Origin: Clytia hemisphaerica
Taxonomy: Eukaryota > Cnidaria > Hydrozoa > Leptothecata > Clytiidae
DNA length: 64,000 nucleotides
Direction: 5' to 3'
NCBI GenBank assembly: GCA_902728285.1
Contig: CACVBU010000615.1
Location: forward strand, 2,713,736-2,777,735
Position numbers and translations under genes: made by a program
In this document: positions 5,240 through 35,347 of the stretch, in pieces
How the letters are laid out: the number at the start of each line of letters is the position of its first letter
Position numbering within the stretch: position 1 is the stretch's first letter
The notes under the pieces: generated by a model
Database searches by the model: none
Seen by the model: only the letters and a program-made list of their open reading frames with translations
What the model was told of the DNA's origin: nothing

Positions 5240-5462
5240 TCATGTCCGTCTACACCAAGGTTTAACTCCAGAAGTATCAATGAATGTCAGTTTTGATATT
5301 TTCGTTATCATCATCGTCGTGTTTTGATTGCCGTCGAATAAACCATGACATTGGCATTCCATCCCCAAACATGTCTTTCCGTCATAACTGTTTTTTTTGG
5401 TATGTCTGAGACATTCATTTGGTGCTTCATAGGCCCTTCTCCCGTTTACAAAATATTTAAAC
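5240..5462 (-). CDS. candidate exon 16, alternative cysteine-rich C-terminus
   Basis: Behind the acceptor TTTTCCAG an open frame of 73 codons runs to TGA at 5242-5240. It has a cysteine cluster (CLRHT...CLGMECQCHG) and then a hydrophilic tail. It needs phase 2 at its 5' side. The only upstream donor giving phase 2 is the weak AA/GTCTGG inside exon 15 (5798/5797). If used, the protein gains this cysteine-rich end. If not, the segment is a chance ORF or belongs to an alternative transcript. The frame and cysteine content favour it being real, while the donor quality counts against it. Confidence 0.4.
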
Positions 5463-5757
5463 CTGGAAAATAAGTTCTTATTTATGACCCAAAAAACTTT
5501 ACTTTATTTGATAATTTTTACAATTGTCAAAAGAAAAATAGTTTGATTTTAGTCTATTTTTACCATATTTTAGGTACAAATTTCAACATTCTTCCAAACC
5601 CCAGTTTATCCCACCCTCCCTGTTTCTCAGACACCTGAGAGTAATCGTCCGATAAAAGCTCCAAATACATCCATCAGCTTTCAAACCATTCTATGGTCTG
5701 TTATAAGGTTATGAGGGACCTTTAAGAGTGGTGGTTTCCATGCATGTTCGGTTTTTA

Positions 5758-5819
5758 TTATCCGTTCATTCCGAAGGTTAAGATTCTTCCTCCAGACTTA
5801 AAGATATCTTTTCCATCGA
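5758..5819 (-). CDS. exon 15 (probable terminal exon)
   Basis: The acceptor TTATTTTTCAG precedes TC GAT GGA, completing a valine codon with the single base left by exon 14. The frame reads VDGKDIFKSGGRILTFGMNG and stops at TAA (5760-5758). AATAAA overlaps the stop (5759-5754) and could act as a polyadenylation signal. The only GT in the exon is AA/GTCTGG, which would cut it to 22 bp and join it in phase to exon 16. Confidence 0.6.
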
Positions 5820-5855
5820 CTGAAAAATAACAAAAGGAAAATTAGTTTAGATACA

Positions 5856-6012
5856 ATTCATGATATTCATGACGTAATGTTTTCTACGGAAGTACCCCAG
5901 TTTTAACCAGTAGTGGCAAATTTGAACTAGTTAAAAGTTGTATAAAATTTGCCACTACTGGCAAAAACTGGGGCCTTTCCGTAGAAAACATTACGTCATG
6001 AATATCATGAAT
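5856..6012. mobile_element. fold-back MITE ATTCATGATATTCATGACG, copy 1
   Basis: An almost perfect palindrome of 157 bp. Both ends read ATTCATGATATTCATGACGT outward-in, continuing through TTTTCTACGGAAAG and the box CCAGTAGTGGCAAATTT to a short loop near 5935. A second copy is at 30954-31102. Both lie in or next to the same gene. The terminal word is shared with the element at 8265-9768 and resembles the ends of those at 13947 and 19727. Confidence 0.85.
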
Positions 6013-6052
6013 CAAAGTCATAATATTTAAGAAAAAATTTTACGAAATCTTA

Positions 6053-6222
6053 TAACCACAAACGATTTGGAAGTGCTTTAACTTAGGTTGGAAGGGTAGA
6101 GTTTTAACTCTAAGTTTTAGAATTGAAATATTCGAATAAATTTATCAATTAGCCCAAAAGCAACTTTCTCGCCCGAACTTTAAATTGCTAAAAACGAGGA
6201 ATTAACCAAAATTCTCAATATT
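6053..6222 (-). repeat. dispersed repeat, inverted relative to 14238-14512
   Basis: The segment from AACCACAAACGATTTGGAAG to TTAACCAAAATTCTCAATA matches the reverse complement of the stretch immediately left of the LINE at 14.5 kb. Shared words include TTGGAAGGGTAGAGTTTTAA and CGGGCGAGAAAGTTG. It has no coding capacity and its type is unknown. Confidence 0.55.
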
Positions 6223-6237
6223 TTGACTGAGATTGTA

Positions 6238-6478
6238 CAGTGTGTCCCAAAAAAAGCGGACACATTTTTATATAAAGTAAAATCCTTACAACGCATTATC
6301 TAAATTGGGCTTAGAATAATCGAAATAAGAGTTTCTTTGTAATCAAAAGATATCCCATTCCCAAGATGATTACATAGGTTTTTGAGGTATAAATATTAAG
6401 TCTGCAAGCCATAAAATTTGGGACAAATTATGATGGTTTTACTTTATATAATTTGTCCGCTTTTTTTGGCACTCACTG
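6238..6478. mobile_element. Tc1/mariner-like MITE with TA target duplication
   Basis: The termini CAGTGTGTCCCAAAAAAAGC and GCTTTTTTTGGCACTCACTG are inverted repeats, continued by TTATATAAAGTAAAA on both sides, and the element is flanked by TA (6236-6237 and 6479-6480). At 241 bp it has no coding capacity. The CAGT...ACTG ends and TA target are typical of Tc1/mariner derivatives. A larger relative with similar ends is at 17836-19632. Confidence 0.8.
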
Positions 6479-6710
6479 TATGTGTTACAAAGTATAAGTA
6501 TAAGTCCTCGACCTGTTCTTTTTTAACAGAAGGATTTGGAAAATCTATAAATAACAATGCGGAGACAGCGAGGTGGTTGGAATAGAGAACAACTTTTTTA
6601 TTTTATTCGCCTCCAATTTAATCACCCATTCCTTTTCGGTAATATTTCACTCTTGAATATCTTTTCAACAAGCTTAAAATCGCTATCTAATTCGATATTT
6701 TTGTTTTACT

Positions 6711-6840
6711 TCGAATAAACGCCCCCCTTCTTTTAAACGCCCCCTCGAATAAACGCCCCTCCTAAAAGGAAAATTATTTAATAAACGCCCCCTCAAATAA
6801 ACGCCCCCTTCGAATGAACGCCCCCTCTAGAGGAGGGCGT
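6711..6840. repeat. AATAAACGCCCCC tandem minisatellite
   Basis: Six or so copies of a 13-20 bp unit containing AATAAACGCCCCC or variants (TTTAAACGCCCCC, GAATGAACGCCCCC) occur in tandem, ending with an inverted copy GAGGGCGTTTATTA. Strong C/T strand bias on the plus strand. It lies downstream of exon 14 in an intron. Confidence 0.75.
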
Positions 6841-7714
6841 TTATTAGAAACATATGACTTTATTACTTCAATATCAGTGTTGATTGGGTTTGAAAAGGAA
6901 AATTTTAGTCATTTCTTGTAACCAAAGCAGTTTTCGATGCAATTTCAATCGTTGAACCAAAGAAATTTTGCACTAAAATCCTGATAAAGAACTAAAACAA
7001 AGGGTATATTTGTTCTAAATATTCGACTTTAGACTAAAATAACTCACACACAAATGCCGGATGGAAAGTAAAATTAATGCAAGATTTAAAAAAATCTATC
7101 ACACAAAGACAAAGAAATTGCTTGATGCCAACATCAAAAGTATGACGCACATTTTAGAGGTTTCACTTTTTCTTGCTTGAGAAAGGTTAAAGGTTCGCTT
7201 CTAGCTTCGGGCTTTTACTTCATTGGTCTTAAATGAGACAGTTTTAGATTTCTTTTGTAGTGCGTACGATTGTTTTTCGGTGCTTCACGTTTTTTTTTAT
7301 AAAAACATCCAAAACTTTTGAAGCCTTCGAATCTTCTGAACTTTTTGATTTTGAAGACTAAAAATGTTCTTAATATGTTCTTACTTTCAGCACTGTGTGC
7401 GTATTCTTGTCCGTTTTACTAAGAAATCTGGTGTCCCAAAAGCCTTAAAATGTTCTTAACATTTTGGCCATCGAAACCTTATGTTCTTTTATATGGTTTG
7501 TTCTTATAAAAAACGTGTAAACGAATAAGATCGAGACCATCGAATAAAGCATTAAATTCTGAGCAAAAAAGTATACTACAACAAGTATTGAACAGTTCAG
7601 TTCAGGTCCTATGAAGGGCCTTTTAAATGAGAAAGTTTTGGATATCTTTCGTAGGACACACGAATTTTTATGGGCGCTAATAAAGTTGTTGAAGATGTAT
7701 TGTAGTTGATATAC
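6841..7714. other. intron 14 remainder, nothing recognised
   Basis: AT-rich intronic sequence between the minisatellite and exon 14. The short minus-strand ORFs running from exon 14 into it are read-through past the splice donor. No further exon was found. Confidence 0.4.
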
Positions 7715-7845
7715 CTGTGTAGTCAGGGAAATTATCATAAGCATCCATCGGTCCAGTGAATTCAGTCGAATCCAAATTATTGACTGGGCTTGAATCCAGT
7801 GAAATGAGTTTTGCAATATAGTCGGCTTCAGATACCAGTTCATTT
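7715..7845 (-). CDS. exon 14
   Basis: The acceptor TTGTTTTTCTTCAAAG precedes an exon of 131 bp ending ACACAG/GTATATC, phase 2 in and 1 out. It encodes RNELVSEADYIAKLISLDSS through FPDYTG. The segment is acidic, rich in Asp, Ser and Asn, with no cysteine. The plus-strand copy at 682-812 has the same length and phases, which confirms both exon borders. A longer ORF covers it, but homology starts exactly at this acceptor. Confidence 0.85.
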
Positions 7846-8264
7846 CTTTGAAGAAAAACAATTTTTGGTTGCAATTTAAATTCATCAGAAAGGAGAACAT
7901 AAACAACAATGGAGCGACTGGTACGTGTAGCCCTTAAGGGTTGTTTTTTGGAACTTTTTAAATTTAAATTATATTTAAAGGCGACAGTAACCAAAAAAAA
8001 TCTAAAAGCCTATCTAATGATCAGTTTTATCAACTTTTTTTGGATTACTTTGATTTTACCTTCAAAAAACACAAGAAAAGTCAACTAAACTTCGAACATC
8101 ATCAAGGGTGAATTTTTCATCGACTTTCTAAGGGTGATTTTCTTTTCAAACACACAACCGACGTTTCTTCAAACATATCTATCTCCGTTAATTCATGATA
8201 TACAACATTACAATGTCTTGATTGACGTATTGACTGATTTTACGTCACTTACAACCAATCAGCT

Positions 8265-9768
8265 ATTCATGAAATTCATGATGTAATCTTTGCGCCTAAA
8301 CAATAGATGTGATGTAACAACTTTGCCGTGGCAAAAAAATTGTCCCGCTAACCTATTTTGTATTGAAACCGGTGTCACAGTAAAATATTACTCCCCAAAA
8401 TTTATACTCTCCAGTCATTATTTACTGGGAAATAATTACTCCCCAGTAATCTTTTCCCAGGAAATTATTACTTCCGGGAGTATAAATTTACGCAAAAATA
8501 ATGACCCCCTTCGGGAAATCTTTACTCCCCTGATAGTATACCAAAAAACTGGCATAGATCACGATCAACATTCGGTTTCCTAATCTTTTTTTTCCTGTTT
8601 ATCATGAATAAATAACAAAAACAATATGGAAACTTTTACTGTTATTTTGACATTTAAGTTGAATTTAAACTTTTTTCTTGAGTGCGATTTGCTTGGGTTA
8701 GAAAATTGAGAGATATTTTAAAAACCTGGTACATCTTGACACTGCAACACTGTTTTCTTTATTTTGAAATAATTCTTGAAATTTAATTCAAAAAATTCTT
8801 GTTTGTAGAGCTTTTTCTTGGCCCAATAAAAATTCTAATAAAAAGGAGTATACTGATTCCCCCCCCCCGTTTATTCAACCCCCCGTCTATTATATTTTAC
8901 AGAAATTTCGGACCTCCTCCCCCTTTTATATTTGGACCCCTCTATTATTCGGGTCCTTAGAGTAGAATATTTCAAAAGGAAAATAAACATAAAAAATCGC
9001 TACAGTGGGGATAGCATTCTTTGATTTTTCCCCGAACGGATGAAAATATTCTTGGCGTCACCAGGTGTACAGTTCAACGGGATGGGTGGGGGTAACAACG
9101 GGTCACTTTAACTTGTAGATGATTTTATGGCTAGGTTTTCTTTTACAACAACCACAACAATAAAGTTTATGGATTACAGTATGCATACATTTTTAAAACT
9201 TCTCTACTTAGCAAGTGACTTCATTGATTGGAATGTCCAAATCGAATGTTTAATTCGAATATGCAATAGCCGGAATTCACCAGGGAGTCATAATTTACTG
9301 GGAAAATAACACTCCCCCCTAATTAGAGCAAATAAATTTGCAATTTGAAAGGGAGTAATTTTTTCCACGGGGGAGTAATAATTTCTCAGGTAATTATTAC
9401 TCCGGGGGTCATTTTTTCCCGGGAAATTATAACTGAGGGAGTGATTTTTTCAGGGGAGTAAAGATTTACGGTTACACCGGGGGTTTACAAAAAAGAAAGC
9501 TTAATATCTTGTGACGTAATATAATAGAATTAAATATCTTTTGGAAATCTATTGCAGATAATTAAAGAATTTCAATGAAAGAGTTTTTTCTTTGATTTGG
9601 AGTATTTGGACTTCTGTATTAATCTTTTCTTATTTTTCCGGGGGTCCTTGCTTGGAAAACATTGGGGAACGCATTTGTTTTGCCACCAATAATGGCGGCC
9701 AAATGTTTTGATTCGGAGTGTCAATCAACGAAAAGATTACATAAGATTACATCATGAATATCATGAAT
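8265..9768. mobile_element. 1.5-kb non-autonomous DNA element with ATTCATGA ends
   Basis: The left end ATTCATGAAATTCATGATGT and the right end ACATCATGAATATCATGAAT are inverted repeats, continued by AATCTTTGCG / CATAAGATT with lower similarity. Another element (8369-9480) sits inside. No transposase frame is visible. The ends match those of the small palindromes at 5856 and 30954, suggesting one family mobilised by the same transposase. Confidence 0.6.
8369..9480. mobile_element. nested element with CCGGTGT ends and TTACTCCCC subterminal repeats
   Basis: The left end CCGGTGTCACAGTAAAATAT and the right end, inverted CCGGTGTAACCGTAAATCTT, are similar TIRs. Both arms carry many inverted copies of ATTACTCCCC / GGGGAGTAAT and TTACTGGGAA. 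Between the arms, 8590-9280 is ordinary AT-rich sequence with a C-run at about 8862. No ORF of note. It is nested in the 8265-9768 element. Confidence 0.65.
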
Positions 9769-9886
9769 TGGGTCCGTGATGTAATGTTAGAAGACATTAC
9801 AATGGTAATGAATAAGTCGATGAAAAGTGTTCATAAAAAAAATACAATTCGAACTAACATCAAATTTGTTTGAAAATGATTTTTAC

Positions 9887-10010
9887 CTTTGATCAGTCAA
9901 TGTATGTTCGATTTTCATTCTGCAATAATATTTGGCGTGCAAACATTTCCCATAAACATAATCCGTTGATGTTACGATGAATTCAAAATATGTGAAGAAG
10001 GGACTCAATC
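9887..10010 (-). CDS. exon 13
   Basis: The acceptor TTTTTGTTTTCAG and donor CAAAG/GTAAAA bound 124 bp, phase 1 in and 2 out. The translation GLSPFFTYFEFIVTSTDYV continues YGKCLHAKYYCRMKIEHTLTDQ and contains two cysteines. It joins exon 12 through a GGA codon and exon 14 through an AGA codon without breaking the frame. No family assigned. Confidence 0.8.
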
Positions 10011-10264
10011 CTGAAAACAAAAAAGAAAATAAACTTGCGGAATCAGATAAGCATTAAGGATGCGATGGTTAAGGATGCGATGGTCAATATTGCTCCACAT
10101 CTTTGTCAATTCAATGTGAAAAGCTTGTAATGTAGAATTGATGAGTAAGCGCGAACGAGATCAACTTAGTCTAAAAACAAAAAATAACATCCAAAAAAAA
10201 TTGAAAGCAGTGCTAGAAGGACCCGTTTTTTTCGTTAAAATTTGAATTGTGTTTGACTCATTAC

Positions 10265-10317
10265 CTTTCCACGATAGCCCTTGGTCAGTTGTCATAAAAC
10301 AATTCGATTTCTGTACC
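10265..10317 (-). CDS. exon 12, contains an Asp-box-like motif
   Basis: A 53-bp exon between TTTATTTTTCAG and GGAAAG/GTAATG, phase 2 in and 1 out, encodes LVQKSNCFMTTDQGLSWK. The TTDQGLSW core fits the Asp-box consensus (S/T-x-D-x-G-x-x-W) seen in sialidase-like and VPS10/sortilin propellers. One motif alone does not prove a propeller fold. The cysteine pairs plausibly with one in exon 11. Confidence 0.75.
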
Positions 10318-10893
10318 CTGAAAAATAAACACGATCAAATTAGACTTTTTCATAGTTTAAGTCGATGACTTTCATCTAAGAGAAAAAAAATCCAAAGACA
10401 GGAGTTTTTGCTTGGGAGTATCTTAAAGGGATTAATTTTCGCATGGACTTTTTTCACGAATTGAGTATCCAAATTTTTCGCATGGGAAATATTTCGCGAA
10501 TCGCCCTCTTTTTCACCTAATTGTTTTCATTTTCCTAGGGGTTTCTGCCAAAGTCTGGATTTTAAATATTTCACGAGGACTAATTTTCGTGACTTAGGGG
10601 AGGAATCTTCAACTTTTGCAAAGCAAGAAAAAGTGAAGCCTTACGATTTGCATCGCTTTCAGAATGAAGGATAGCGCTTTCATTATTTTCACGTGGCATA
10701 TCTTTTGAAATCAAGTGATGAATTTTACTGGTATTTGTAGAATCAGGCGGGTCGTATGTTTTGGATTGGAATTATAAGTTGCTTTATTTCCTATCCAAGA
10801 TTTTCATCTCTGGCCGCTTCGGGGCTTTGATCTCAACAAATGAGATTGAAAATGATGTTAAAACATTTTTATAAACAAATATAAGAGACTTAC

Positions 10894-10990
10894 AGGTCAG
10901 CTTTGAGAGCACAAACAAACATCGTTTCACCAAGAGATGTGGTTGCCATGACGATCCCTTTCAATATCATATTCTCCATCCCTGGCCATA
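10894..10990 (-). CDS. exon 11
   Basis: 97 bp between CTTTTTTTGCAG and GACCT/GTAAGT, phase 1 in and 2 out. Of three frames only one is open, reading VWPGMENMILKGIVMATTSL and then GETMFVCALKAD. The hydrophobic beta-like stretch followed by the Asp-box-like exon 12 resembles a blade of a BNR/VPS10-type repeat, but this is inference. It joins exon 10 directly, skipping the Penelope-like fragment at 11.3 kb. Confidence 0.8.
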
Positions 10991-11305
10991 CTGCAAAAAA
11001 AGTAGAAACAAAGAATTACCTGAAGGGAAATAACTTTCGCTTATATCGCGGCTTTTTGGCAAAACCACGAAAATTAGAATCCGCAAATTAAAAATTTGGC
11101 CGTTATTTATATGCGTTCAAATGGTCATTCTTCATACAGTATAAATTTATTCTAAACCTCTTAAGTAAAGTTTTTCATCAGGTTCACCAAATGTTCAGTT
11201 GAGATCATCGTTTTGACGTCAGATGACATCAATGCAATAATAACCTCTACCTGATATGCGAGAGCATTGGTTTCCAGAACCTAGACGTCACATACTAACC
11301 ATCGT

Positions 11306-11539
11306 CTAGATTTGAACATGTTCACTATGTCTTATCGTCTCCAATGCTTCTCGCACCTTCCTATCAAATTTATTTTCCTCTTTTTTAAGGAGCGATACAT
11401 CATCCCAGTTCAGTCCCTCTTTACATATCCTCGCTTGATTCGTAATACCAAATAAATACCACTTTTCGTCCTTGACATTTTTCTCATGTTGATTCACTCG
11501 TGTGGATACTTTAAGCCCTGTTTCACCATGGTATACCAC
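11306..11539 (-). pseudogene. GIY-YIG endonuclease fragment of a Penelope-like retroelement
   Basis: The frame begins VYHGETGLKVSTRVNQHEKN and continues through LFGITNQARICKEGLNWDDV and NKFDRKVREALE to a stop. This matches the body of the GIY-YIG nuclease domain that follows reverse transcriptase in Penelope-like elements (the YIGETG motif, catalytic Arg, and the later EALE segment with Glu). The GIY strand is degraded and no reverse transcriptase is nearby. It lies in intron 10 on the host gene's strand. I rejected it as an exon because exons 10 and 11 join in frame without it. Confidence 0.6.
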
Positions 11540-11599
11540 ATTTGGCCATTTTTCATAAAAAAGGAAAACTTATTATATAAGGATTGAGTACATGCATAC

Positions 11600-12034
11600 C
11601 TGGCAGCTTAAGAAAATCATTGTCCTCATTAGATTTGTCGTCGAACAATTCATTTGCAAATTCGGGTATCTGTGTCCCAGTATGTCTCCACTGTCCATCT
11701 ACATTTCGAAGGTGAGCAAGAGATCCAGTTCTTTCTTTTCTCCAACATGTCAAAATTTTGCCACTTTCAATTCCTGTTGTTTGATTCAAACGTTTGGTTA
11801 TGTAAAGATTAAACAAATCTGCTTTAGAAGTAGTTTTCTTTATATCGTTGTTAAAACTGGATAAGAAAGTTTCCTCCGAACTCCCATCATCAATGAACTT
11901 CATACGTCCTGCTTGATCGTAAAAGAATTTGGAGTTTTTGCATCTTGATGTTGATTGCTTCAGGAAGTAAGCGGTTGTTGATTTGTCCATGTAAAGACAG
12001 GCCCCTGTCTTCGCATGCCGTAATCGGAAACGCT
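11600..12034 (-). CDS. exon 10, 145-residue module, possibly beta-trefoil-like
   Basis: The largest exon, 435 bp, phases 1-1, between TCGTATTTTAG and CCAG/GTATGC. It starts KRFRLRHAKTGACLYMDKST and has internal echoes about every 45-50 residues: a hydrophobic strand, a G-x-L or G-R-M turn and an aromatic (AGRMKFID, TGSLAHLRNVDGQWRH). Together with CLYMD near the start, these recall ricin-type or FGF-like trefoils. That is a guess from pattern only. Four cysteines. Symmetric phase 1-1 makes it a potential shuffled module. Confidence 0.8.
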
Positions 12035-12184
12035 CTAAAATACGAAATGATTTAAAATTTTGCTTAAAACGATACTTTTGTTGATTTTTTTTTCTAAGAT
12101 ACTTCAAAGTCTATTCTGCGAATCCTATTAGTATTTTTGTTCAATTTCAAGTGTTTTACAGACCATAAAAAATAAGATGTTCTT

Positions 12185-12285
12185 ACCCAGCTGGCACACA
12201 ACGTTGTTTCAACGTTTAATTAACGTTCACAACGTCCATATAATGTTAAATGAACATTGAAACAACGTTTTATGCTGGCTAGGTA
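12185..12285. mobile_element. ACGTT-family palindromic MITE, copy C
   Basis: 101 bp from ACCCAGCTGGCACACAACGT to the inverse ACGTTTTATGCTGGCTAGGT, containing internal AACGTT boxes. It lies in the intron between exons 9 and 10. Confidence 0.75.
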
Positions 12286-12370
12286 ACTTGTTGTCGATAT
12301 TTTAGCCACCGAAGCCTTCATGTCCTAATATTAAGTTTTTCGTTAGAAAAACATGTGTATGTAGCCTTAC

Positions 12371-12620
12371 TTTGATTCAAATCCATGAAAAATTCTTGGC
12401 CTCCATAAATAACTTCCGGTTCTGATTCTTCACTTTTTGTCTCAAAATGAAATTTATAAACATCACTGCAAATGTCATCGCCATGCACACAGTAGGTATA
12501 ATCCATGAAATTACGCATGGTATGACTCTTTCCAACAAAAAGTGTCATCTCGTTCAATGGGTAGTCAAATTGGAAATCGAGAAAACGGCTCGATGTAAAT
12601 GTCGGGTCCATGTATTTGTA
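12371..12620 (-). CDS. exon 9
   Basis: 250 bp between ACCTTTAATTTCAG and AATCAAA/GTAAGG, phase 0 in and 1 out. It encodes YKYMDPTFTSSRFLDFQFDY followed by an aromatic-rich beta-type segment, a cysteine pair (YCVHGDDICSDVY) and a Glu/Ser-rich linker ending FFMDLNQ. It is not recognised as a known domain. It may continue the fold begun in exons 7-8. Confidence 0.8.
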
Positions 12621-12724
12621 CTGAAATTAAAGGTAAAAGTAAAATAATTTAGTTCAAGTGTACATATACGAGACCCTTTCCTCAGTAGACCTTCAGTTCA
12701 AGCAATTACGCATTTTTTTTCTTC

Positions 12725-12845
12725 AAAATTCATGAAATTTCTGTTTACGTAAAGTTTTAAATTTCACGCATTCACGCAGCTTTTTTTTAATTTTTACGCG
12801 TTCACATAAGTGAAAGAGCCCCTTCGCGTATTCACGCAAAACCAC
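12725..12845. repeat. ACGCATTCACGCAGC dispersed repeat
   Basis: Words such as TTTACGTAAAGTTTTAAATT, ACGCATTCACGCAGC and GCGTATTCACGCAAAACC recur here. A shorter related copy is at about 25828-25895 (GTTCACGCAAAGTTTTCCAA, ACGCATTCACGCAGC). Non-coding. Confidence 0.5.
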
Positions 12846-13070
12846 TGGGGACCCACACATATGTAATAAAATCTTTGGTCCAGGTCTTCTGACATGGATT
12901 GAGATTTGTCATAAAAGTTCCCGAAACACGTTTTCTAAAGTGACATCGTATGGTTCTTAAGAGCTCTCAAAATTGTCAGCGGGTAGTTTTCTGTGTAATT
13001 TCTAACCTGACTACAAGTGATACTTAAATTAGCTGTCACAAAATGTAACTGTAGCTGTAGTTCAAGCCCA

Positions 13071-13429
13071 CCCTGGTATTCAAATCAAGGAGAATCATTG
13101 TTTATCCTTTGGACAAATCAAGAACAAAACAACGTACACCTTGAACTCCATTCATGTCCAGTACTATGACATTTACACCTTGGGAGCAAAACCCCTGGAT
13201 ATTAGGGATAATTTGGAATGTACTGGAATTGTACTTGATTAAGAAAACTCTATCCAAAGTTGTCCATAGTGTACTTAGCTTAGATTGTACAAGATTGGGC
13301 TGGTCCAGATTGTCCACAGTTTATATCTAATTTTATTTCCATTATACTGTACTCTTAAAAATTTAGGTATAAAGTACACCCTGGTTGATCGTAGTGTGCT
13401 TAGTTTTGTCCTTGATTTGAATACCAGGG
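13071..13429. mobile_element. MITE with CCCTGGTATTCAAATCAAGG TIRs
   Basis: The 20-bp left end CCCTGGTATTCAAATCAAGG (13071-13090) is present as an exact inverted copy, CCTTGATTTGAATACCAGGG, at the right. The interior contains repeated GTACTGGA and TTGTCCA words. No coding capacity. It is located in the intron between exons 8 and 9, about 150 bp from exon 8. Confidence 0.75.
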
Positions 13430-13577: not shown

Positions 13578-13764
13578 CATGTATGTCATCGGTCCTCTTG
13601 GGTTGTGGAAGTGCTGTGATTCGCCTATTTCACCTGCTGGTACTACCAAAGATGTTTTATCCAATAGGATTTGTGGAGAGTAAACTTTACTAACGATATT
13701 CCAAACGCGTGTTGTTCCGGCGTTTCCTTGTCGATGGTACTCAAATCGCATCCAAAACAAAAAC
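13578..13764 (-). CDS. exon 8
   Basis: 187 bp, phase 2 in and 0 out, between CAAATCATAAAG and TACATG/GTAAGA. It encodes GFLFWMRFEYHRQGNAGTTR and later LVVPAGEIGESQHFHNPRGP. The VPAG turn also occurs in exon 5 (INVPAGTTITAS), so exons 5-9 may contain two related beta-sandwich modules. That is inference. The pyrimidine tract of the acceptor is poor, but the phase fits exon 7 exactly. Confidence 0.75.
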
Positions 13765-20005: not shown

Positions 20006-20193
20006 CCGGGCGCAAAATGGTTGTTATGCCTCATGAATTTTGCACGAAAACTATAAATCTGTTGAACTGGAGAGGAAATATCAAGTTTGTGAGCAAACTG
20101 TTTGACAAAAATTCGTTCCATCTTTGAAGTTTGATCTTTCATGTGGAAAATTGTAGTTATGTAGCGTTCTTGTCTTTCAGTAGCAGCGGTCAT
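20006..20193 (-). CDS. exon 7
   Basis: 188 bp, phase 0 in and 2 out, between TTATGATTTTAG and GCCCGG/GTAAGA. It encodes MTAATERQERYITTIFHMKD and ends FRAKFMRHNNHFAP. The ATG at its start is internal: exon 6 ends in phase 0 directly before it. Basic, without cysteine, no known domain. Confidence 0.75.
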
Positions 20194-21924: not shown

Positions 21925-22127
21925 TTTATAATTGTAGTCCCAAGTAAGTTTGTGATCAGTTTCAACCATGGTTGTCGATTTAAAAGTATCCTTTTTTGTT
22001 ATCCTCCTATAAACTTGATCGTTAGAATCTTTCTCTACGCTTGAAAGGCAAAAATCCTCATTGGGTAAATCTAAACTTTCTGAAGCCGATTTCACACAAC
22101 CAAAATTTCCAAGAACAAGTCCAAGTT
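21925..22127 (-). CDS. exon 6
   Basis: 203 bp, phase 1 in and 0 out, between TTGTTTTTTCAG and TATAAA/GTAAGT. It encodes ELGLVLGNFGCVKSASESLD, a second cysteine (EDFCLSS) and a charged stretch ending KLTWDYNYK. The long ORF past the donor is read-through. No domain is recognised. Confidence 0.8.
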
Positions 22128-24755: not shown

Positions 24756-25010
24756 CTAATCCTCTCTAGTAAGAGTGGCGTTCTTGTAAAACAATTTCCA
24801 TAATTCGAAGTGCCAGCTTTTATATTGCAGACACAGCTGAATCTGATAGGCCGGGAGCTCAGAGCAAGCATAATGGACAAGTCTATCACATCTCCTACAT
24901 TGTAAGGTGTCGTTATCTGCTATGATGGTGTTTGTTAAACAGTTATTGGGTGTGCAATATCCATAATTTTGTTGAATTTCCTTGTTAAAATTTTCGTTGA
25001 TTTCCGCCAT
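24756..25010 (-). pseudogene. LINE ORF1 start with PHD-like zinc finger
   Basis: MAEINENFNKEIQQNYGYCT, then cysteine pairs in NCL, LQCRRC and HYACSELP. The C-x2-C...H-x2-C layout matches the PHD-like finger found at the start of ORF1 in many CR1 elements. It starts with an ATG close to the 5' edge of the element, and the frame is lost after LPAYQ. Confidence 0.6.
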
Positions 25011-25579
25011 ATTGTTGCATTTTCAGGATCGTGACAGCACAGAAAATATTTGACGTTATTCTTAGGTTTTGACAGATGTTCAGCCTCGTGTTCTTATAAA
25101 ACTGTTCTTTTAAAAAGAGCGGGTACAGTATCATATTTTTGGCTATTTCGGTGATTCAAGCTGAGAATTTCAGCTATAGTCTTAAAATTTGAAACGTTTA
25201 TCTAGATTTTATATTTTTCATTTTTTTAAAGAAAATTCTTTCCCAGCCTTCCCAACTGGCACACGAACGTGTGTTGGTCACTCGATTTAAAAAAGACGGC
25301 ATGTGCGTGCCGCCAAAATATTGTCTTTCAAGATCGGACCCTACAGTGCAGCTCTTAAACAGTTAAAAGGTACCTTTACAGTGATATTTATAACGAAAGT
25401 TTCTCATCCATACAGTGCAGTTTGATTGAATATCTTATTTTGCTGAAGCCACCCAAAAGTGAGGTCAGCACAATGTGCAAAAAAATCAAAATGAGTGCGA
25501 GTCAAAACTTTAAAGATACATCAGATTTGCGATTCAGCAGTCCTCGAGCACATCCTATCCAGCTAAAAGAAGACCCTTA

Positions 25580-27070: not shown

Positions 27071-27235
27071 CTGCAGCAGTCTGATTGGCATTCATCTTCT
27101 TTGCTGATACATAAAGGGAGAATTCTTGGTCATTATTTTCCTCGATCAACTTGTACTCAAATGCAAATGACGCCGTGATTGTAGTTCCAGCAGGAACGTT
27201 TATGCCTTGATTTTTGGTGACGTAATAATCCATCT
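27071..27235 (-). CDS. exon 5
   Basis: 165 bp, phases 1-1, between TTTTGTTTTATAG and GCTGCAG/GTAACA. It encodes KMDYYVTKNQGINVPAGTTI and then FEYKLIEENNDQEFSLYVSA. Beta-rich, no cysteine. The VPAG turn recurs in exon 8. Symmetric phases fit a shuffled extracellular module. No known family. Confidence 0.8.
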
Positions 27236-27384
27236 CTATAAAACAAAATCGAATTTAGAAAAACTTAAAATGAATGAAAACAGTGGATTCTCAGCAACTC
27301 GAACATGGGAATTCATAGGGTCCGGATAACTTTGTTCGATTTAAGGAGACTCTACTGTATTTCACTAGTTGCAACAACTTTCTA

Positions 27385-27480: not shown

Positions 27481-28179
27481 TTCTATAAAAAACATCAGAA
27501 AAAGTAGAAATCTGTTTTCCTTTATTCTATCCCTAGCCCGGGGGCAAATCCATACCACTAGATCCAGTCTCTTTTTGGAGAAAAAATAAACAGAGAACCA
27601 AAGACCAACTTTTTCCAAATTTGGGAGGTATTTTATGTTTTTCTTATAGTTTCATAAACTTTTATAGGGTTTTAGAATAAAATTCATTGTTGTTGTTTTC
27701 ATATAATTTTTGTAAACGAAAGTTAAAAAATTCTAAGATGGCGATATCCACTGGTTTACTTCACTGGAATCAGCGCCATTAAATGGGGGTCGAATCCATT
27801 GAGTTTAAAGCCTGAAGGACCTTTCTCAGGCAAGAAAAAGTGAAGCCACTTATTTCCCATCCAGAACGCGCCTAGAACGCGCCACAATCATATTTACCAA
27901 ATTGGCTGGGAGGTCGAATTGATATTATTTTAATGGGCATGAAATGGGCATTTCTTTATGAAAAATTTATTATAATAATTCTCGCAAGTGAATAAATTTT
28001 GGCGTTTTCTAAATAAGGCGATCGTTCAAAATTGGATTTTTACCGGATTTACTTTGGCTAAAACTCAATTTTAATAAAAATTTAATTCTGCAAATGTTGG
28101 AATTTTTTAATTTTGATCTCTGCATTCGGTAAAATTCAAAAAAAAATAAACAATCGACTTAAGGTAATTTTACACTTAC

Positions 28180-28365
28180 TTGATTCGAGGCAAGCTCCTC
28201 CCCTAACATTATCTACGCTTGATCCACCACAAGAACTTCTGCCAGAATTGTAACTGGGTGGAAATTTATTGCAGAGGCGGGTACGTTTCATTTGAGGATT
28301 AGTGGAGGTGCTCTTCAAAGCGCATTTTCCAGTCCACGTGGTCCACGGTGACCATTGTCCATTAA
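28180..28365 (-). CDS. exon 4, thrombospondin type 1 repeat
   Basis: 186 bp, phases 1-1, between TTATGTTTAAG and ATCAA/GTAAGT. VNGQWSPWTTWTGKC opens with the W-x2-W-x2-W ladder of TSP1 repeats, followed by KRTRLC (the Arg layer strand) and further cysteines in SSCGG and GGACLE. There are four cysteines. The usual CS-x-TCG segment is replaced by GKCALKST. TSP1 repeats are extracellular, often C-mannosylated on these tryptophans. One exon per module with symmetric phase is the usual arrangement. Confidence 0.85.
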
Positions 28366-28396
28366 CTTAAACATAAAATTATCGGTTATTAAGCTT

Positions 28397-28505
28397 CCGG
28401 AGGGGGGGGGGGTACTTAGGCAAAATGGGTGCTAGGTATGTGCAGACGGTAAGGGTCGGTTTTTTCACCTTTTAAAGTCTCTCTAAAGGTCGCAAAAATC
28501 AGAAA
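28397..28505 (+). repeat. direct repeat, unit 1 of a pair about 2 kb apart
   Basis: A G-run then GTACTTAGGC, GGGTGCTAGGTATGTGCA and AAAGTCTCTCTAAAGG. A second copy in the same orientation is at 30462-30560. The pair flanks the 1.1-kb fold-back element, but nothing LTR-like (no TG...CA ends) was seen. Confidence 0.5.
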
Positions 28506-28939
28506 AATTTAAACTATTAATTTAGAGCGAAACAATTGTAAAAAAGTCTCTCTAAGGGTAGGAAATTTTGCAAAAATCGAAAAATTTTTCAATAAAACCA
28601 CTCTTCACCTTTTTATAAACGCTCATTTTGAAATCTAATTCTTTGCACTACGATTCTTGTACATAAATTTAAAGGTTTGGGAGCTACTTTTATCATTCTT
28701 AGATATGTTGTAGATAGAGTAAAGACGATTCCATGGTGATAGCTTGCTTAAACTTATCTTAATAAAATCGAATCTCCTGCAGTTTTCGAGTGAATAGATT
28801 TTTAGTTAATCGATAGAGCTTATCAAAAGCTTATCCCCCTTCCCTTCACTAACGGTTTTTTCGAAGTCTGAAAATCAAATATCTGAGGCTACCAACGGAT
28901 TCAGCGTGAAAAGTAGATAAAGAAAATGGGGTTATTTGT

Positions 28940-30062
28940 TAAGTTTCGACCACGTTGTGCCGAGAAATGGCATTTTAAGGCGAAAAATCGACGTTTTTGG
29001 CGTTTTCCGATGACGTCAGCAAAAACAGAGGCATTTTCAGAAAAAATCATTCCCACAGCTGGATAGCCCTGGATTAGTAGTATTTGAAAATGGTATGGTT
29101 TGATGGTTTGTTAACTTTCGATGTTCCGATCAAGAGATATTTCATTTTTACAATTTCTTCAAGACTCTCCTTTAATTCTAACTCAGGTGGATAGATATCT
29201 TTTAAGGATACATCAATGTTCTTCTTCAAATTAATCAATGTTTTTATGAGATAGATGCTTTTTTTGCTCATGAGGGCTTACTATACTTTTGAAGAATATG
29301 TGTGTTTAGACATGAAATTTTGGTTGCTTGGTGTGTTTTTATAGAAAAACTGGCCAAAATCGATATTTTTTTATAAGCACATTATCAATTACTTATGTTA
29401 GCTTTTCTCGACATTGGCTCTTTCATTCTTTATGATTTTTTGCACAAAGATGCCTAACTTTAAACCTTCGAATGTGACGGAGCCCCATTTTCGAAAGAAA
29501 ATGTTTTTGGGCAAATTTGGGCCAAAAAACGGCTAAAAAAACGGGGTTTTTGGACACTGAAAAATTGGATCATTAATTTTTTCAGATTTTTTGTATGAAA
29601 GTAGGTAAAAGATGGCTCAAGCAGATTTTTGCAAAAAAAATTTGTTGGCTCAAAAAACGCATGTTTATCTATAAGAATCACTATTAAGAAGCATACATCA
29701 ATGTTCTTAGTCAAATTACTCGATTCTTTGTTGAGATATATGTTTATTTTGCTCACGAACTCTTGAATATGAAAGAATATTTCAAGATCATGAAATTTTG
29801 GTTTCTAAACGTTTTTTTTAATAAGAAACAAACGACTAATTTTATTAGATCGTCACTATTTGTGTTCTGAATGATTGTTTAACGGTCATGCTCACGTAGA
29901 TATCAATTATATGTGTTAGATTCATAACCAAGTAGGTCCATAAAAGTATCACTTGTTTCTGAAAATGCTCCTAGAAAAATGCTGACGTCATCGGGAAACG
30001 CCAAAAACGTTGATTTTCCGCCTTAAGGAAGCCATTTCTCGGCACCAGGTGGTCAAAACTTA
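28940..30062. mobile_element. 1.1-kb fold-back element with about 85-bp TIRs
   Basis: The left arm TAAGTTTCGACCACGTTGTG...GGCGTTTTCCGATGACGTCA and the right arm, the inverse TGACGTCATCGGGAAACGCC...GGTGGTCAAAACTTA, match over about 85 bp. The interior carries two related halves (around 29230 and 29700: AATCAATG / ATGAAATTTTGGTT), giving two similar minus-strand ORFs that I take as repeat shadows. No transposase. Confidence 0.7.
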
Positions 30063-30063
30063 G

Positions 30064-30290
30064 CTCTAGTTTAGACGGACCCCTTTTCGCCCTGCCTATT
30101 CTAATTGTGAATTAAAGTAGGCTTAAAGTATGCTGTCTAAAGTCAATGCATTGCCCTCTTTTGACGTCAATGCAATGTCTTCTTTTAATCTTTTTCAAGC
30201 AAAGATTTTAACTGCCAACTTTGTGCCCACTTTCTGCTTACTCTAACAATTAGAATAGGCAGGGCAGAAAGTCGGCCGTCTAAACTAGAG
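30064..30290. mobile_element. CTCTAGTTTAGACGG MITE, copy 1, 5-bp target duplication
   Basis: Inverted ends CTCTAGTTTAGACGGAC and GGCCGTCTAAACTAGAG, with GCCCTGCCTATTCTAATTGT mirrored at the right. Flanked by CTTAG on both sides (30059-30063 and 30291-30295). 227 bp. The interior has TTGACGTCAATGCAATG. The second copy is at 31998-32222. Confidence 0.85.
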
Positions 30291-30461
30291 CTTAGAGATT
30301 TTCGAGGGTGTGAAAAAGGATCCTTATGGCTTGCATATACCCAGTACCCAGACTTTTTGACTCCAATATTATTCCTTCTTGAAGCTGTAATGTTTTATGT
30401 AAGAATTTTACGGAAAAATATTTTTATAAATTTCTATGCAATAACTCTTGAAAAATACCCG

Positions 30462-30560
30462 GGGGTGGTACTTAGGCAGGGTACTGGGTATGTGCAAGCC
30501 AGAAGGGTCCCTTTTTTACACCCTTAAAAGTCTCTAAAAGGGGTACAAAAATTAGGAGTC
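30462..30560 (+). repeat. direct repeat, unit 2 (partner of 28397-28505)
   Basis: GGTACTTAGGCAGGGTACTG, GGGTATGTGCAAGC and TTAAAAGTCTCTAAAAGG correspond to the first unit. Confidence 0.5.
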
Positions 30561-30953
30561 AGGTATCTGTATACCAAAACTGCAATTTTTAGCACCAAAT
30601 AAAAGAAGGTTTTTTTCTTCATTTTTTATCTGCATTCTTTGAATTTTTTTAGAATTATTTTCGCAGAAATTAGAGGGCTCTAAATTATTTTTGCAACGGT
30701 AAATAATATGTCAGAATTGAAACATTCTTTGAGAAAATGGCAAGCAATTGACAAAGATGAGTGCACAGTTAAAGCCATATGGCCTCTGATCTCGGACCAG
30801 GTAATAGTGAAGTTACGGACGTTTTAATGTTTACCGTAACTAACGTAAAACGTCAGAAGACGCTTCGATTGGTATGTAAAATTATTATTTTAACTCTCAA
30901 AAATTGTACTGTACTTTTTATTATACTGCAGGACTTAAAAGCATATACGACAT

Positions 30954-31102
30954 ATTCATGATATTCATGACGTAATGTTTTCTACGGAAAGACCCCGGTT
31001 TTAGCCAGTAGTGGCAAATTTAAACTAGAAAAGGGTTGTACAAGATTTGCCACTACTGGCGAAAACCGGGGTCTTTCCCATTACGTCATGAATATCATGA
31101 AT
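30954..31102. mobile_element. fold-back MITE ATTCATGATATTCATGACG, copy 2
   Basis: 149-bp near-perfect palindrome with the same arms as the copy at 5856-6012 (CTACGGAAAGACCCCGG, CCAGTAGTGGCAAATTT). The right arm lacks the short GTAGAAAA segment. It lies in intron 3, about 150 bp from exon 3. Confidence 0.85.
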
Positions 31103-31249
31103 ACATAGTTAGTACCTTCTGAAATAATGTATTTTCTTTGTTTTTAAATTCAAGCGGAATTATAATATTTAGACACTCCCCACCACACAATCTTTTTGAT
31201 GTGTTCAAAAAGATACGAAAAGAGTTTAAAACAAGAAATATAGTTTTAC

Positions 31250-31504
31250 CAGCACCGGTGCCATAAGAGCTCATTTGGCAATAAATTCCTCTGCTTGCGA
31301 ATGTTGTACCAGCAATATTTCCAAGACAAACACAGTTTCCTGTCCCACCAGCAATAGCAGTCGGCTCTTCGTCATACCACCATTGCATATGGTTTCGGCC
31401 AGTCGCTTGACATTGTTGAGAACATGCCATATAAGTCAATCCATTATACCCTGAAAAGTCACTTGATCCGTACTCGCGTGTATGTCTTTGAGGATTGGTG
31501 CAAA
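31250..31504 (-). CDS. exon 3, WSC-like module
   Basis: 255 bp, phases 1-1, between TTTTTATCATCTAG and GGTGCTG/GTAAAA. It encodes CTNPQRHTREYGSSDFSGYN, TYMACSQQCQATGRNHMQWW and GGTGNCVCLG. The MACSQQC, aromatic, then NCVCLG order resembles the WSC domain (C-x3-C and C-x-C after a G-rich turn), a putative carbohydrate-binding extracellular module. Five to six cysteines. Moderately confident of the family, highly confident of the exon. Confidence 0.8.
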
Positions 31505-31997
31505 CTAGATGATAAAAATAATAGATGATAATAATATTAGGGAACAATTAAACAATGTGCTCTCAAAAATATATTTAGGTGTGTCATCCACAGTGTATTG
31601 GGGCTGTATAAGCCTTTGTTAACCGGTTACTTTTTCGAAGTGGGCTACACGGCTTTTTGCGCAATGTAATTGGTTCTTTTCGCATGACGACGGGCCTGCA
31701 TTGTCCAGAGTTGCCCGTCGTTAGGAAAATTCATTGTGACGTCACTTTTTCAAAGGAAAATGAACAATGCATTGACAATAACCAAATAAGAATTTTTCAA
31801 TACGTATTTTTGGACATTTTTTTGAGTTTTCCACACTGGTCCTTGCAGGGTTTCAGTTTCATGTTTGCCTTTTCTTTTTCCTATTGGTCATTGCTCACTG
31901 TTTTTCAGATTCTTCATCTTAAAATAGATTTGATTTCTATATCCAAATAAATTTGTGATTTATCTTATTTAAATATGACTTAACGAAGATTATTGAG

Positions 31998-32222
31998 CTC
32001 TAGTTTAGACGGCCCACTTTTTACCCTGCCTATTCTAATTGTGAATTAAAGAGGGCACAAAGTTGGCTTTCTAAAGTGATGCATAGCCCTCTTTTGACGT
32101 CAATGCAATGTCTTCAATCAAACCTTTCCAAGCAAAGATTTTAACAACCAACTTTGTGCCCTCTTTCTGCTTACTCTAACGATTAGAATAGGCAGGGCAG
32201 AAAGTCGGCCATCTTAACTAGA
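31998..32222. mobile_element. CTCTAGTTTAGACGG MITE, copy 2
   Basis: Left end CTCTAGTTTAGACGGCCC, right end GGCCATCTTAACTAGA, slightly decayed. The interior is the same as copy 1 (CCTGCCTATTCTAATTGTGA and the inverse). No clear target duplication. Located in intron 2. Confidence 0.8.
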
Positions 32223-32390
32223 TTTGAATGACAATGCATTGACATCATTCCTCTCATTTTTTATTTCTGACTTCAGAAATTATAACAATTTTTTATCTCT
32301 TTTCTCTTGTTTTTTTTTCGCTTTATTTCGCTATTTTGCCTGGATAAAGCGCTAAAAATCAATCGAAGCTGAAGGAAATGGTTAACAAAT

Positions 32391-32523
32391 ACAATAATGA
32401 CCGTTTTTTAGGGCTGTACTGAAAATGTTGCCCTCAGTCGACGCAACAACCTCGTAAGGTCGGTCGTTACTTGACCTCGGGCAATATTTATCAGTACAGC
32501 CCTCACTAACCGGTCATTATTGT
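32391..32523. mobile_element. palindromic MITE AGGGCTGTACTGA
   Basis: ACAATAATGACCG at the left and CGGTCATTATTGT at the right, followed inward by AGGGCTGTACTGA / TCAGTACAGCCCT and TTGCCC / GGGCAA. 133-bp fold-back, no ORF. Confidence 0.8.
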
Positions 32524-32581
32524 GTTAAATTATAATAATTAGTGCTTTACAGAGGCCAACAGCAATGGAAAAAAGGATTTG

Positions 32582-32816
32582 AATAGATCTTTTCATAAAT
32601 TACTTAATGAACATCACTTGCCTCGTTTTGAAATGATTGTCATGATGTCATGATTTACTCCCAGCGGATTTTATCGTAACTACTTTCTATTCATAAAAAA
32701 TTCATTTGTCTCATATATATCTATCATTTGTCTCAAGGGACATAATATCACCATATGACAATTGTTTAAATACGAGGCAAGTGATGTTTGTGACGTAATT
32801 TATGTAAAGGTCTATT
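32582..32816. mobile_element. palindromic MITE CATCACTTGCCTCG
   Basis: Left arm AATAGATCTTTTCATAAATT then AACATCACTTGCCTCG. Right arm CGAGGCAAGTGATGTT then AATTTATGTAAAGGTCTATT. Arms about 65 bp, 235 bp in all. Confidence 0.8.
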
Positions 32817-34140
32817 CCCTAGTCAGTTGAACGATTATAAAAAATATATTTTTTCCTCAGGTAAGTTAGACATGTTGCGAAATTATGAAAATTACCGTAA
32901 TTTTTAGAAAGCATTAGACAGCAGAAAATGAGCAAACCAATGATTTAATACGGAGGGTACCATGATGAAGTTCCCCTGAAGGGGTGTTACCTAATTGTTT
33001 ACGCCCACATATTTGGTGAAAAACCGCAAAGCAAAAAAGCTAAAAAAGTGCTGACGCCTGCAAAACTTGTTTTTTAAATAACTCCAGTTTGGGTAATGAT
33101 AGAGCATGGGTAGAGACATGAGATTTGAGAGAGAGATTGAGGTAGAGATTGAGATTGATGTACATCATTAAAAGGATCATTTTGCAAAAATAAAATTTTG
33201 AATTTTTGCTGACGTCAGTATTTTTTTGCAAAATTTTGCTGATTTCTGCAGACAACAGCAAAATTTGAAAAGAAAATTCGCAAAAAGATCCTTTAAATGA
33301 TGTCTAACTTTAGTCCAAATGTCATGTTTCTACTAGTAGCCAAACTAGAGTTAGTTAACCCTTTAAGTGCCACGGTCCTTTTATTTCTAAGTTTTTAAAA
33401 AAAATCGCAAGTTTAAACTTTAAAGGCTTTTATCTCCGGATCTAGAAGGAGTTAGAAGCTCGTTCATAGCTTGTTCATAGCTTGGAGTCTCCTCTTTCTT
33501 TTAGGCTCCTTTGGCGCTGCTTGATTTAGGAAGGCAGGGTGGACAGCGGCTAAGGGGGGTGGGGGGTTAGGTTAGGGGACGCTGCTTGAAGTATTTCAGA
33601 TTAATTTGCTAGAAGACAGAATAAAGTATAACCAGGCCAAATTTGGAGGATATTGGATCACTTGTTCACCAAAAATGTCAAAAACGGCCAAAATCTCAAA
33701 AAGTGGATTTTTCAGAAATGAGCCAGAATGCTAAAGCAGCCCCAGTCCTGATCCGAAAATTGGAGTTGCTTATAAAAAAGTGTATTCCCCATCAACAACC
33801 TTTAGTGATGAGTTTTTGAAGATTGGTTAACATGTGATGCTAGTAAGTGACCAAATCCCTTGGGGGTTGGGGGTCTCACTCAAGGTCTTGTTTCCAGAAT
33901 AGACGGGGGGGATCCGAATAAGAAGGAGGTTAGGAAAATTTTCTAAATTCTAATAAGAGGGGGGGTAATTTGAAGACAGAATTTTTTTAAACTGATATCA
34001 ATTTCAACACCAAGAAAGGAACTTTAACAAACGAACACGTAAAATAAGAGCCAATACTTACAAAAAGGAAAATATTAACAAGTTTAAGGTTTATCTACAC
34101 TGAAATAAAATATTGAATTATTTGAATTTAATTAGCGGGG
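32817..34140. other. intron 2 remainder, no gene seen
   Basis: AT-rich sequence with GA-rich runs near 33110-33150 and G-runs near 33555 and 33905. The words AACCCTTTAAGTGCCA (33357) and AACCCTTTAAGTACCA (34287) may mark the ends of a decayed repeat. No exon found. Confidence 0.35.
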
Positions 34141-34275
34141 TCTTAATAAGAGCGGGGGATGGATTTTTTTTCTCTTAACAATTAGCGGGGGGGGACGTCT
34201 TTTCGGGTCTTAATAAGAGCGGGGGATGGATTTTTTTTCTCTTAACAATTAGCGGGGGGGGGGCGTCTTTTCGGG
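34141..34275 (+). repeat. two-copy tandem repeat, 67-bp unit
   Basis: Two nearly identical units TCTTAATAAGAGCGGGGGAT...CTCTTAACAATTAGCGGGG...CGTCTTTTCGGG in tandem. They differ mainly in the length of the T and G runs, so the duplication is recent. Confidence 0.85.
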
Positions 34276-34528
34276 AGACAAGAGTAACCCTTTAAGTACC
34301 AATGTCGAGTATACTGTCGAGTTAGAAATCGTCATTTTTGGTCTAACTCTTAGGAATTGGATTGGGTTTCATGGTCAAGCAAAAAAAAAATCAAAAGTGA
34401 CCAACGACCGACCGACCCATATTTTTTTGAAGGTCTTCCCGTAGAAGGATAGATAAGAATAAGTTTTCTAGCCTAATTCGATGCAAAATAAGCCATCAAA
34501 ATAATGCAATATTAAATTATTAACTTAC

Positions 34529-34571
34529 TGTGTTGATGACTTCCTTGAACTTGAAGATAATAACATGCAAA
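34529..34571 (-). CDS. exon 2, end of signal peptide
   Basis: 43-bp exon between CATTTCTTTTTCAG and AACACA/GTAAGT, phase 0 in and 1 out, encoding FACYYLQVQGSHQH. With exon 1 it completes a hydrophobic signal peptide with likely cleavage after VQG. Only this frame gives the phase needed by exon 3. Confidence 0.75.
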
Positions 34572-35302
34572 CTGAAAAAGAAATGCAAAAATATGAAAGA
34601 AATAGTTCGTGCCCCTCCCCCTGTTGAGGATATCGGATATCCATGGGGTTAAATATCTACACGGGAGCGGATATCCAGGGAATAAAGTGTATATTCAAGT
34701 AAAAAATACGATATCCAGGGGTAAGCATCTTTATAAGAGAAGATATCAAGCGAAAGGTAAGATTTGGTGGAGAGGTTAATCTCATAATCCATTCTGCTCG
34801 CGTCAAGCTCTGTGGTCTAAACTCGCATCACGCTGTGGTGGAATGTGGTGGATATGACAGAGCCATGACCTTTAGAGTGAATACATGCTTGGTGATTAGA
34901 TGGAGGATTTCTGCATAACACGTTGCTTTAACATTCGTTTAATGCTAGGTACATAAAGCTAGCTGAGATCAACTATATTTCAACGTTTAAACCTGTCTAC
35001 TCAAGGTTATGTTTCCAACAAATATTAATGAAAATATTTTATCAAACTTGGAAAAAGATATAAAATTTGTGAACCATAACAGACAGAAAATATGCTTCTA
35101 TTAAGATTACTTGCATTGAACAACTGGCTCTTTTTTCTGAGTCTTGTGATCATACAACATGCTACAAAAAAGTTTATAACCACTTGGCCAGAAAAGCTCA
35201 CCCTTATACCCCTTCTTCCATAGCCAGGCTTCTAAAATAAAATATTGGTTTATTTGGTTATTGGTTCATGTGAAACATACATTAATAAAGATAAAAAGTT
35301 AC

Positions 35303-35347
35303 CGATATCATGAACAAAAAAGGTGCTGCATGCTTGAGATTGATCAT
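35303..35347 (-). CDS. exon 1, start of signal peptide
   Basis: ATG at 35347 opens MINLKHAAPFLFMIS, ending TATCG/GTAACT in phase 0. It joins exon 2 to give a typical n-region (Lys5) and hydrophobic core (FLFMISFACYYL). TATAAAA lies directly against the ATG (35354-35348), so it is unlikely to be the TATA box of this exon; the transcript probably starts further upstream. The choice rests on phase and signal-peptide character. Confidence 0.65.

What the first reader, a model, noticed from the sequence alone, without database searches (positions are those of the whole stretch)
5240..35347. A 15-16 exon gene for an unfamiliar secreted modular protein
All exon junctions can be joined in phase from a signal peptide through WSC-like and TSP1 modules to a long C-terminal part with no family I recognise, spread over 30 kb of transposon-filled introns. 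Seen directly: the splice sites, phases and frames. Established: WSC and TSP1 are extracellular modules and symmetric 1-1 exons are shuffled modules. Inference: secretion, and a beta-trefoil-like module and an Asp-box-like motif in the C-terminal half. The combination may be a new lineage-specific architecture.
Basis: partly seen in the sequence, partly recalled or inferred. Interest (0 to 1): 0.8.

Follow-up and report, generated by a model that had tools for sequence, protein, structure and literature searches.

The report
Hydrozoan secreted WSC-TSP1 orphan protein gene
This is a real, intact 15-exon gene, probably of a hydrozoan animal, for a secreted protein with two weakly recognisable recognition modules and a long unknown remainder, and it has close relatives in the same genome.

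Summary
The proposed 16th exon (5463-5240) lies beyond a stop codon that a paralogue shares, and is dropped.

The strongest proof is comparative. A tail-to-tail neighbour (gene A, last two exons in this window) gives all 15 exons in the same order and phases. A third gene, on contig C38, gives exons 1-14, several of them individually weak. In all three the WSC-like/TSP1-like front and the unknown part form one gene.

Relatives of the C-terminal four-cysteine, Asp-box-like module occur at 16 further places, 11 of them matched by its exon-13 part alone.

Module names are soft: WSC is the best Pfam match in 3 of 3 paralogues but under the cut-off; TSP1 is weak, beta-trefoil weaker; the rest has no match better than chance in Pfam or the PDB.

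The mitochondrial contig points to a cnidarian, probably a hydrozoan. Best reading: a secreted glycan- or matrix-binding protein working like rhamnospondin, with a new module order. Function is inferred, not shown.

The parts
35303..35347 (-). exon 1: start codon and first half of signal peptide (phase 0 out)
   Evidence: exons 1+2 rank first of 12 two-exon candidates
34529..34571 (-). exon 2: second half of signal peptide (0-1)
   Evidence: C38 candidate shares QGSH near its end
31250..31504 (-). exon 3: WSC-like module, 6 Cys (1-1)
   Evidence: WSC best Pfam match in 3 of 3 paralogues, all under cut-off
28180..28365 (-). exon 4: TSP1-like module (1-1)
   Evidence: TSP1_CFP_C E 0.00056, under cut-off; exon-4 profile finds a TSP1-like exon on C869 at E 2.1e-6 in a small local ORF set
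27071..27235 (-). exon 5: unknown (1-1)
21925..22127 (-). exon 6: unknown (1-0); weakest conservation
   Evidence: (not above null alone)
20006..20193 (-). exon 7: unknown (0-2)
13578..13764 (-). exon 8: unknown (2-0)
12371..12620 (-). exon 9: unknown, two conserved Cys (0-1)
11600..12034 (-). exon 10: possible beta-trefoil (R-type lectin-like), ends DFLKLP (1-1)
   Evidence: AlphaFold2 without alignment uninformative
10894..10990 (-). exon 11: first part of C-terminal four-Cys module (1-2); 95/97 nt identical to gene A
10265..10317 (-). exon 12: Asp-box-like TTDQGLSW (2-1)
9887..10010 (-). exon 13: C-terminal module, YGKC...C (1-2); 122/124 nt identical to gene A
7715..7845 (-). exon 14: C-terminal stretch rich in Asp (2-1)
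5758..5819 (-). exon 15: last coding exon with stop codon
   Evidence: same end and stop in gene A
682..812 (+). gene A exon 14 (neighbouring paralogue, opposite strand)
2968..3029 (+). gene A exon 15 with stop codon

Best explanation
Shown: an intact 15-exon gene of a cnidarian-type animal, one of a tail-to-tail pair, encoding an 807-residue protein that starts with a signal-peptide-like stretch. Inferred: it is secreted. It carries a WSC-like and a TSP1-like module in front of about 630 residues of family-specific sequence: a roughly 330-residue unknown region, a possible beta-trefoil, and a four-cysteine module with an Asp-box-like motif. Inferred mechanism: it acts as a multivalent extracellular recognition protein. 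The front modules hold it on matrix or mucus glycans while the trefoil and the C-terminal module bind a further carbohydrate or protein target, such as a microbe or prey surface. This is how rhamnospondin/Tsrp2-type TSP1-plus-lectin proteins of hydrozoans are proposed to act.
For: Gene structure and open frame. Same exons, order and phases in gene A for 15 of 15 and in C38 for 14 of 14 exons looked for, exon 15 not looked for. These searches asked for the phases; phase-free listings gave C38 exons 6, 7, 8, 9, 11 and 3 and 4 with the same phases, but exons 5 and 14 with other ends. Signal peptides in 3 of 3. WSC as top Pfam match in 3 of 3. TSP1. Four cysteines of the C-terminal module invariant in 4 of 4 sequences aligned, two of which are near-identical. 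Relatives of that module at 19 places in all. [quoted passage not shown]
Against: No carbohydrate-binding domain passes its cut-off. The trefoil assignment rests on a 20-residue match in gene A alone. No transcript, tissue or binding data exist here. The highest hydropathy window (1.31, residues 661-679, exon 11) is a little above that of the signal region (1.18), though below the 1.6 usually taken for a membrane helix (recalled). Neither single-sequence model helps. A single Asp-box-like motif is not a propeller, and C38 has lost it.
Confidence: 0.45

Rival explanations
1. The protein is a venom or digestive-gland component, with the WSC and TSP1 parts serving delivery and the unknown C-terminal part acting on prey.
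For: A large secreted protein from a multigene family, with N-terminal WSC domains and about 80% unknown sequence, is known from bloodworm venom (glycerotoxin, PMC5336659, passages seen); cnidarians are venomous (general knowledge).
Against: The resemblance is of layout only; no glycerotoxin sequence was compared. Glycerotoxin has EGF and CCP domains that are not seen here, and the word thrombospondin does not occur in that paper's main text.
Confidence: 0.2
2. The protein is a structural matrix or periderm/mucus component whose modules cross-link extracellular polymers, without a recognition role.
For: TSP1 domains bind matrix components (PMC4820225); 22 cysteines and no catalytic domain found.
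Against: No collagen-like or low-complexity tract is seen on reading the sequence; the strong divergence between neighbouring paralogues (22-45% identity per exon in exons 3-10) suits a recognition role better (inference).
Confidence: 0.2
3. The model fuses two neighbouring genes: a short WSC-TSP1 gene and a separate C-terminal gene.
For: Introns of up to 6.2 kb and weak similarity of exon 6. The 16 further relatives of the C-terminal module have fronts that were not seen.
Against: The same fusion would have to arise in gene A and C38 with the same phases; phases run on through every junction.
Confidence: 0.05

Closest known systems
Rhamnospondin (Hydractinia) and Tsrp2 (Hydra)
   Same: Hydrozoan proteins that join TSP1 domains to a lectin domain; as described in PMC4820225 (results and discussion read)
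   Different: Those have eight or 11 TSP1 domains and a rhamnose- or galactose-binding lectin domain; here one TSP1-like module, a WSC-like module, a possible beta-trefoil and an unknown C-terminal module. Sequences not compared.
Hydra group E proteins with zinc metalloprotease, WSC, MAM and TSP1 (XM_002168659, XM_002157460)
   Same: WSC together with TSP1 in a hydrozoan head-expressed protein (PMC4820225)
   Different: They carry a metalloprotease and MAM; none was detected here. Sequences not compared.
Glycerotoxin (annelid)
   Same: Signal peptide, WSC domains in front, most of the length unknown, multigene family (PMC5336659, passages)
   Different: Two WSC, EGF and CCP domains, 1256 residues; homology of the unknown parts untested.

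Membership tests
WSC domain (PF01822) | score above the curated cut-off of 27.8 bits | tested here: not met
   13.7 bits for this gene, 16.2 for gene A; WSC matched by 3 of 3 paralogues, best E 0.013
WSC domain (PF01822) | eight conserved cysteines (recalled) | tested here: not met
   six cysteines invariant in 3 of 3 paralogues
TSP1 repeat | profile score above cut-off | tested here: not met
   TSP1_CFP_C 20.8 bits against a cut-off of 27 for this gene; none for gene A or C38
TSP1 repeat | WxxWxxW and basic motif with six cysteines (recalled) | tested here: inconclusive
   this gene has WSPWTTW and KRTRLC but four cysteines; the third W is lost in gene A and C38
R-type (ricin B) beta-trefoil lectin | three trefoil repeats / profile match / fold | tested here: inconclusive
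   RicinB_lectin_2 E 0.07 over 20 residues in gene A, none here; PDB profile search gave two unrelated matches, best E 0.036; model pLDDT 41
Asp-box / BNR beta-propeller (sialidase, VPS10) | several Asp-boxes in a propeller | tested here: not met
   one motif in 807 residues; no Pfam match and one chance-level PDB match, E 0.96
Rhamnospondin-like | multiple TSP1 plus rhamnose-binding lectin domain | tested here: not met
   no such lectin domain and one TSP1-like module by Pfam

The most novel reading that the evidence does not exclude
Exons 11-13 encode a new small disulphide-bonded extracellular module with relatives at 19 places in this genome and no relative found in Pfam, the PDB, or the prokaryote and viral collections, which defines a cnidarian-restricted family of secreted recognition proteins; the WSC-TSP1 branch (at least three genes) is one architecture of it.
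Probability: 0.35. Interest if true: 0.55.

Novelty: new variant of a known kind. Interest (0 to 1): 0.36.

Why it matters
Hydrozoans make many TSP1 and lectin proteins in the mouth region, some proposed to handle microbes. This family would add a module order, and perhaps a domain, that the profile libraries used here do not detect. The neighbouring pair, with near-identical exons 11 and 13 inside otherwise diverged genes, is also a clean case of exon-sized homogenisation.

Tried and rejected
The 16th exon: rejected. The long exon 14: replaced. Fusion of two genes: rejected by two paralogues. Pseudogene: no stop or frame break in this gene or gene A. PDB searches: the whole first model gave weak thrombospondin-1 (E 0.014) and otherwise E 0.088 or worse; profiles of four modules gave at most two chance-level matches each. 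AlphaFold2 on single exons 10 and 3: mean pLDDT 41 and 56; Foldseek with the exon 3 model gave 25 matches, 0 with E up to 0.001, none titled WSC. Prokaryote and viral collections searched with the C-terminal module: 152 and 88 pattern matches, none confirmed. GFP family in the own genome: no match, and the control did not ring either, so uninformative. Gene A exons 7-9 gave only DUF5335 at E 0.14. Papers on this architecture: searches gave 0, 0 and 1 (unrelated by its title) papers; one search gave four, of which I saw passages of two (PMC5336659, PMC6767649) and the listing of the other two; passages of PMC5446238 hold no WSC. Species: none of the hydrozoan assemblies whose figures I saw in passages fits 417 Mb in 951 contigs, and a search for that contig number found no paper with it among the 8 listed.
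Full report
What is there. On the minus strand, 15 exons from 35347 to 5758 join in phase through 14 GT/AG introns of 254 to 6241 bases into an open frame of 807 codons ending in TAA. The first 25 or so residues (MINLKHAAPFLFMISFACYYLQVQG) look like a signal peptide. No window of 19 residues exceeds 1.31 on the Kyte-Doolittle scale; the highest lie at residues 660-665 in exon 11, a little above the signal region (1.18), and below the usual membrane threshold of 1.6 (recalled). The introns contain repeats; some intron ORFs look like reverse transcriptases by eye (recalled likeness; of 8 window ORFs tested only one gave a Pfam match, a sub-threshold PHD finger).

Proof by relatives. A search of the own genome (417 Mb, 951 contigs) with my first 831-residue model found a second gene, here called gene A, on the plus strand of the same contig, ending inside this window. 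Its 15 exons (C431 2690970 to 2716764; window 682-812 and 2968-3029 for the last two) give an open 800-residue protein. Some boundaries are my choice among near-equal candidates; the exon 9 donor (GTTCGTT) is a poor one. Amino-acid identity per exon to the window gene is 35% (exon 3), 45% (4), 22% (5), 25% (6), 24% (7), 24% (8), 29% (9), 30% (10) and 92% over exons 11-14. The exon search asked for the expected phases. To judge chance, the search was repeated on 8 control pieces of 20-33 kb, of which two overlap by 20 kb and some are the opposite strand of family loci: gene A beat all 8 for exons 3, 4, 5, 7, 8, 9 and 10, not for exon 6.

A third gene on contig C38 has exons 1-14; exon 15 was not looked for, and only 92 residues of exon 10 were found. 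Its exons 3, 7 and 9 beat all 8 control pieces; exon 4 beat 6 of 8, the two better ones being real TSP1-like exons of C869 and C170; exons 5, 6, 8 and 10 did not beat all. Phase-free listings found seven C38 exons (3, 4, 6, 7, 8, 9, 11) with the expected phases, exon 4 with a later donor, and exons 5 and 14 with other ends. Taken as one block, exons 5-9 align between this gene and gene A with z = 18 and with C38 with z = 8.9 against shuffles; these shuffles do not correct for the picking of candidates.

The signal peptide. The C38 and window peptides share QGSH.

The modules. Exon 3: Pfam WSC is matched by 3 of 3 paralogues, with E 0.013 at best and 0.075 here, under the cut-off; six cysteines are invariant. 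Exon 4: TSP1_CFP_C at E 0.00056 here, under the cut-off, none for the other two; the three-sequence exon-4 profile finds a TSP1-like exon on C869 at E 2.1e-6 in a small local ORF set. Exon 10: RicinB_lectin_2 at E 0.07 in gene A alone, with similar short peptides (E 0.07 to 0.4) upstream of the C-terminal module at C240 and C873. Exons 11-13: four cysteines invariant in 4 of 4 sequences aligned; the Asp-box-like TTDQGLSW is exact here, TKDQGLSW in gene A, SLDDGAKW in the C240 type, lost in C38. Exons 5-9 match nothing in Pfam at E up to 1 or, as a profile, in the PDB.

The wider family. With the C240-type C-terminal module as query, 16 further places match at E up to 0.001 (C240 four, C905 four, C355 four, C873, C193, C242, C224; 23 rows listed, two of them above that threshold). 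Five of the 16 (C240 and C873) also match the exon 11-12 part; the other 11 match only the exon-13 and -14 part, and their link to this gene runs through the C240 type. With this gene, gene A and C38 that makes 19. A whole-genome WSC profile search listed 29 places, 8 over the cut-off, none at the three genes studied here, which shows how far below detection these exons are.

Exon-sized identity. Between gene A and this gene, exon 11 is 95/97 and exon 13 122/124 nucleotides identical, with 1 of 31 and 2 of 40 whole codons differing, all synonymous, while exon 12 between them is 42/53, exon 14 is 114/131, and the introns lose similarity within about 20-40 bases. Gene conversion between inverted neighbours, limited to exon-sized tracts because the introns no longer align, explains this best (inference).

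The organism. A 14.5 kb contig carries cob followed by cox1 running off the contig end; in cox1 all six AGR codons stand where arginine is expected and all four TGA where tryptophan is expected (expectation recalled), with ATA as Ile and AAA as Lys. This is genetic code 4, as in cnidarians and other non-bilaterians; cob next to a terminal cox1 is the hydroidolinan arrangement (recalled). A circular genome cut inside cox1 is not excluded. A window GC of 31-41% per 2 kb and 417 Mb fit hydrozoan assemblies seen in passages.

Function. [quoted passage not shown] I take the present protein to work in a similar way, with low to moderate confidence. It is not a rhamnospondin by domains.

Verdict. It is a new variant within the known cnidarian habit of combining WSC, TSP1 and lectin modules, with a possibly new C-terminal module.

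Noticed in passing
window 10894-10990 and 9887-10010 against C431:2710398-2710494 and 2713371-2713494: Exons 11 and 13 are almost identical in DNA between two tail-to-tail paralogues whose introns and exons 3-10 have diverged: probable exon-sized gene conversion.
   Followed up: partly
window 62316-63350 (+): Single-exon rhodopsin-type GPCR ORF, Pfam 7tm_1 E 1.1e-17.
   Followed up: no
window 54473-55024 and 56309-57370: Two large tandem arrays whose units (CCCGAAGTCC.. and GGACTTCGGG..) look like reverse complements of each other.
   Followed up: no
window 24759-25022 (-): ORF with a sub-threshold PHD finger (E 2.9e-4) beside a reverse-transcriptase-like stretch, probably part of a retrotransposon (recalled likeness).
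   Followed up: no
   Followed up: partly
C240:1299486-1299912 (-), L046: A fascin-like exon (Pfam Fascin E 1.2e-7 for a joined query) about 18 kb upstream of the C240 relative.
   Followed up: no
C900 (L052): Mitochondrial contig of 14.5 kb with cob followed by cox1 cut at the contig end, genetic code 4.
   Followed up: partly
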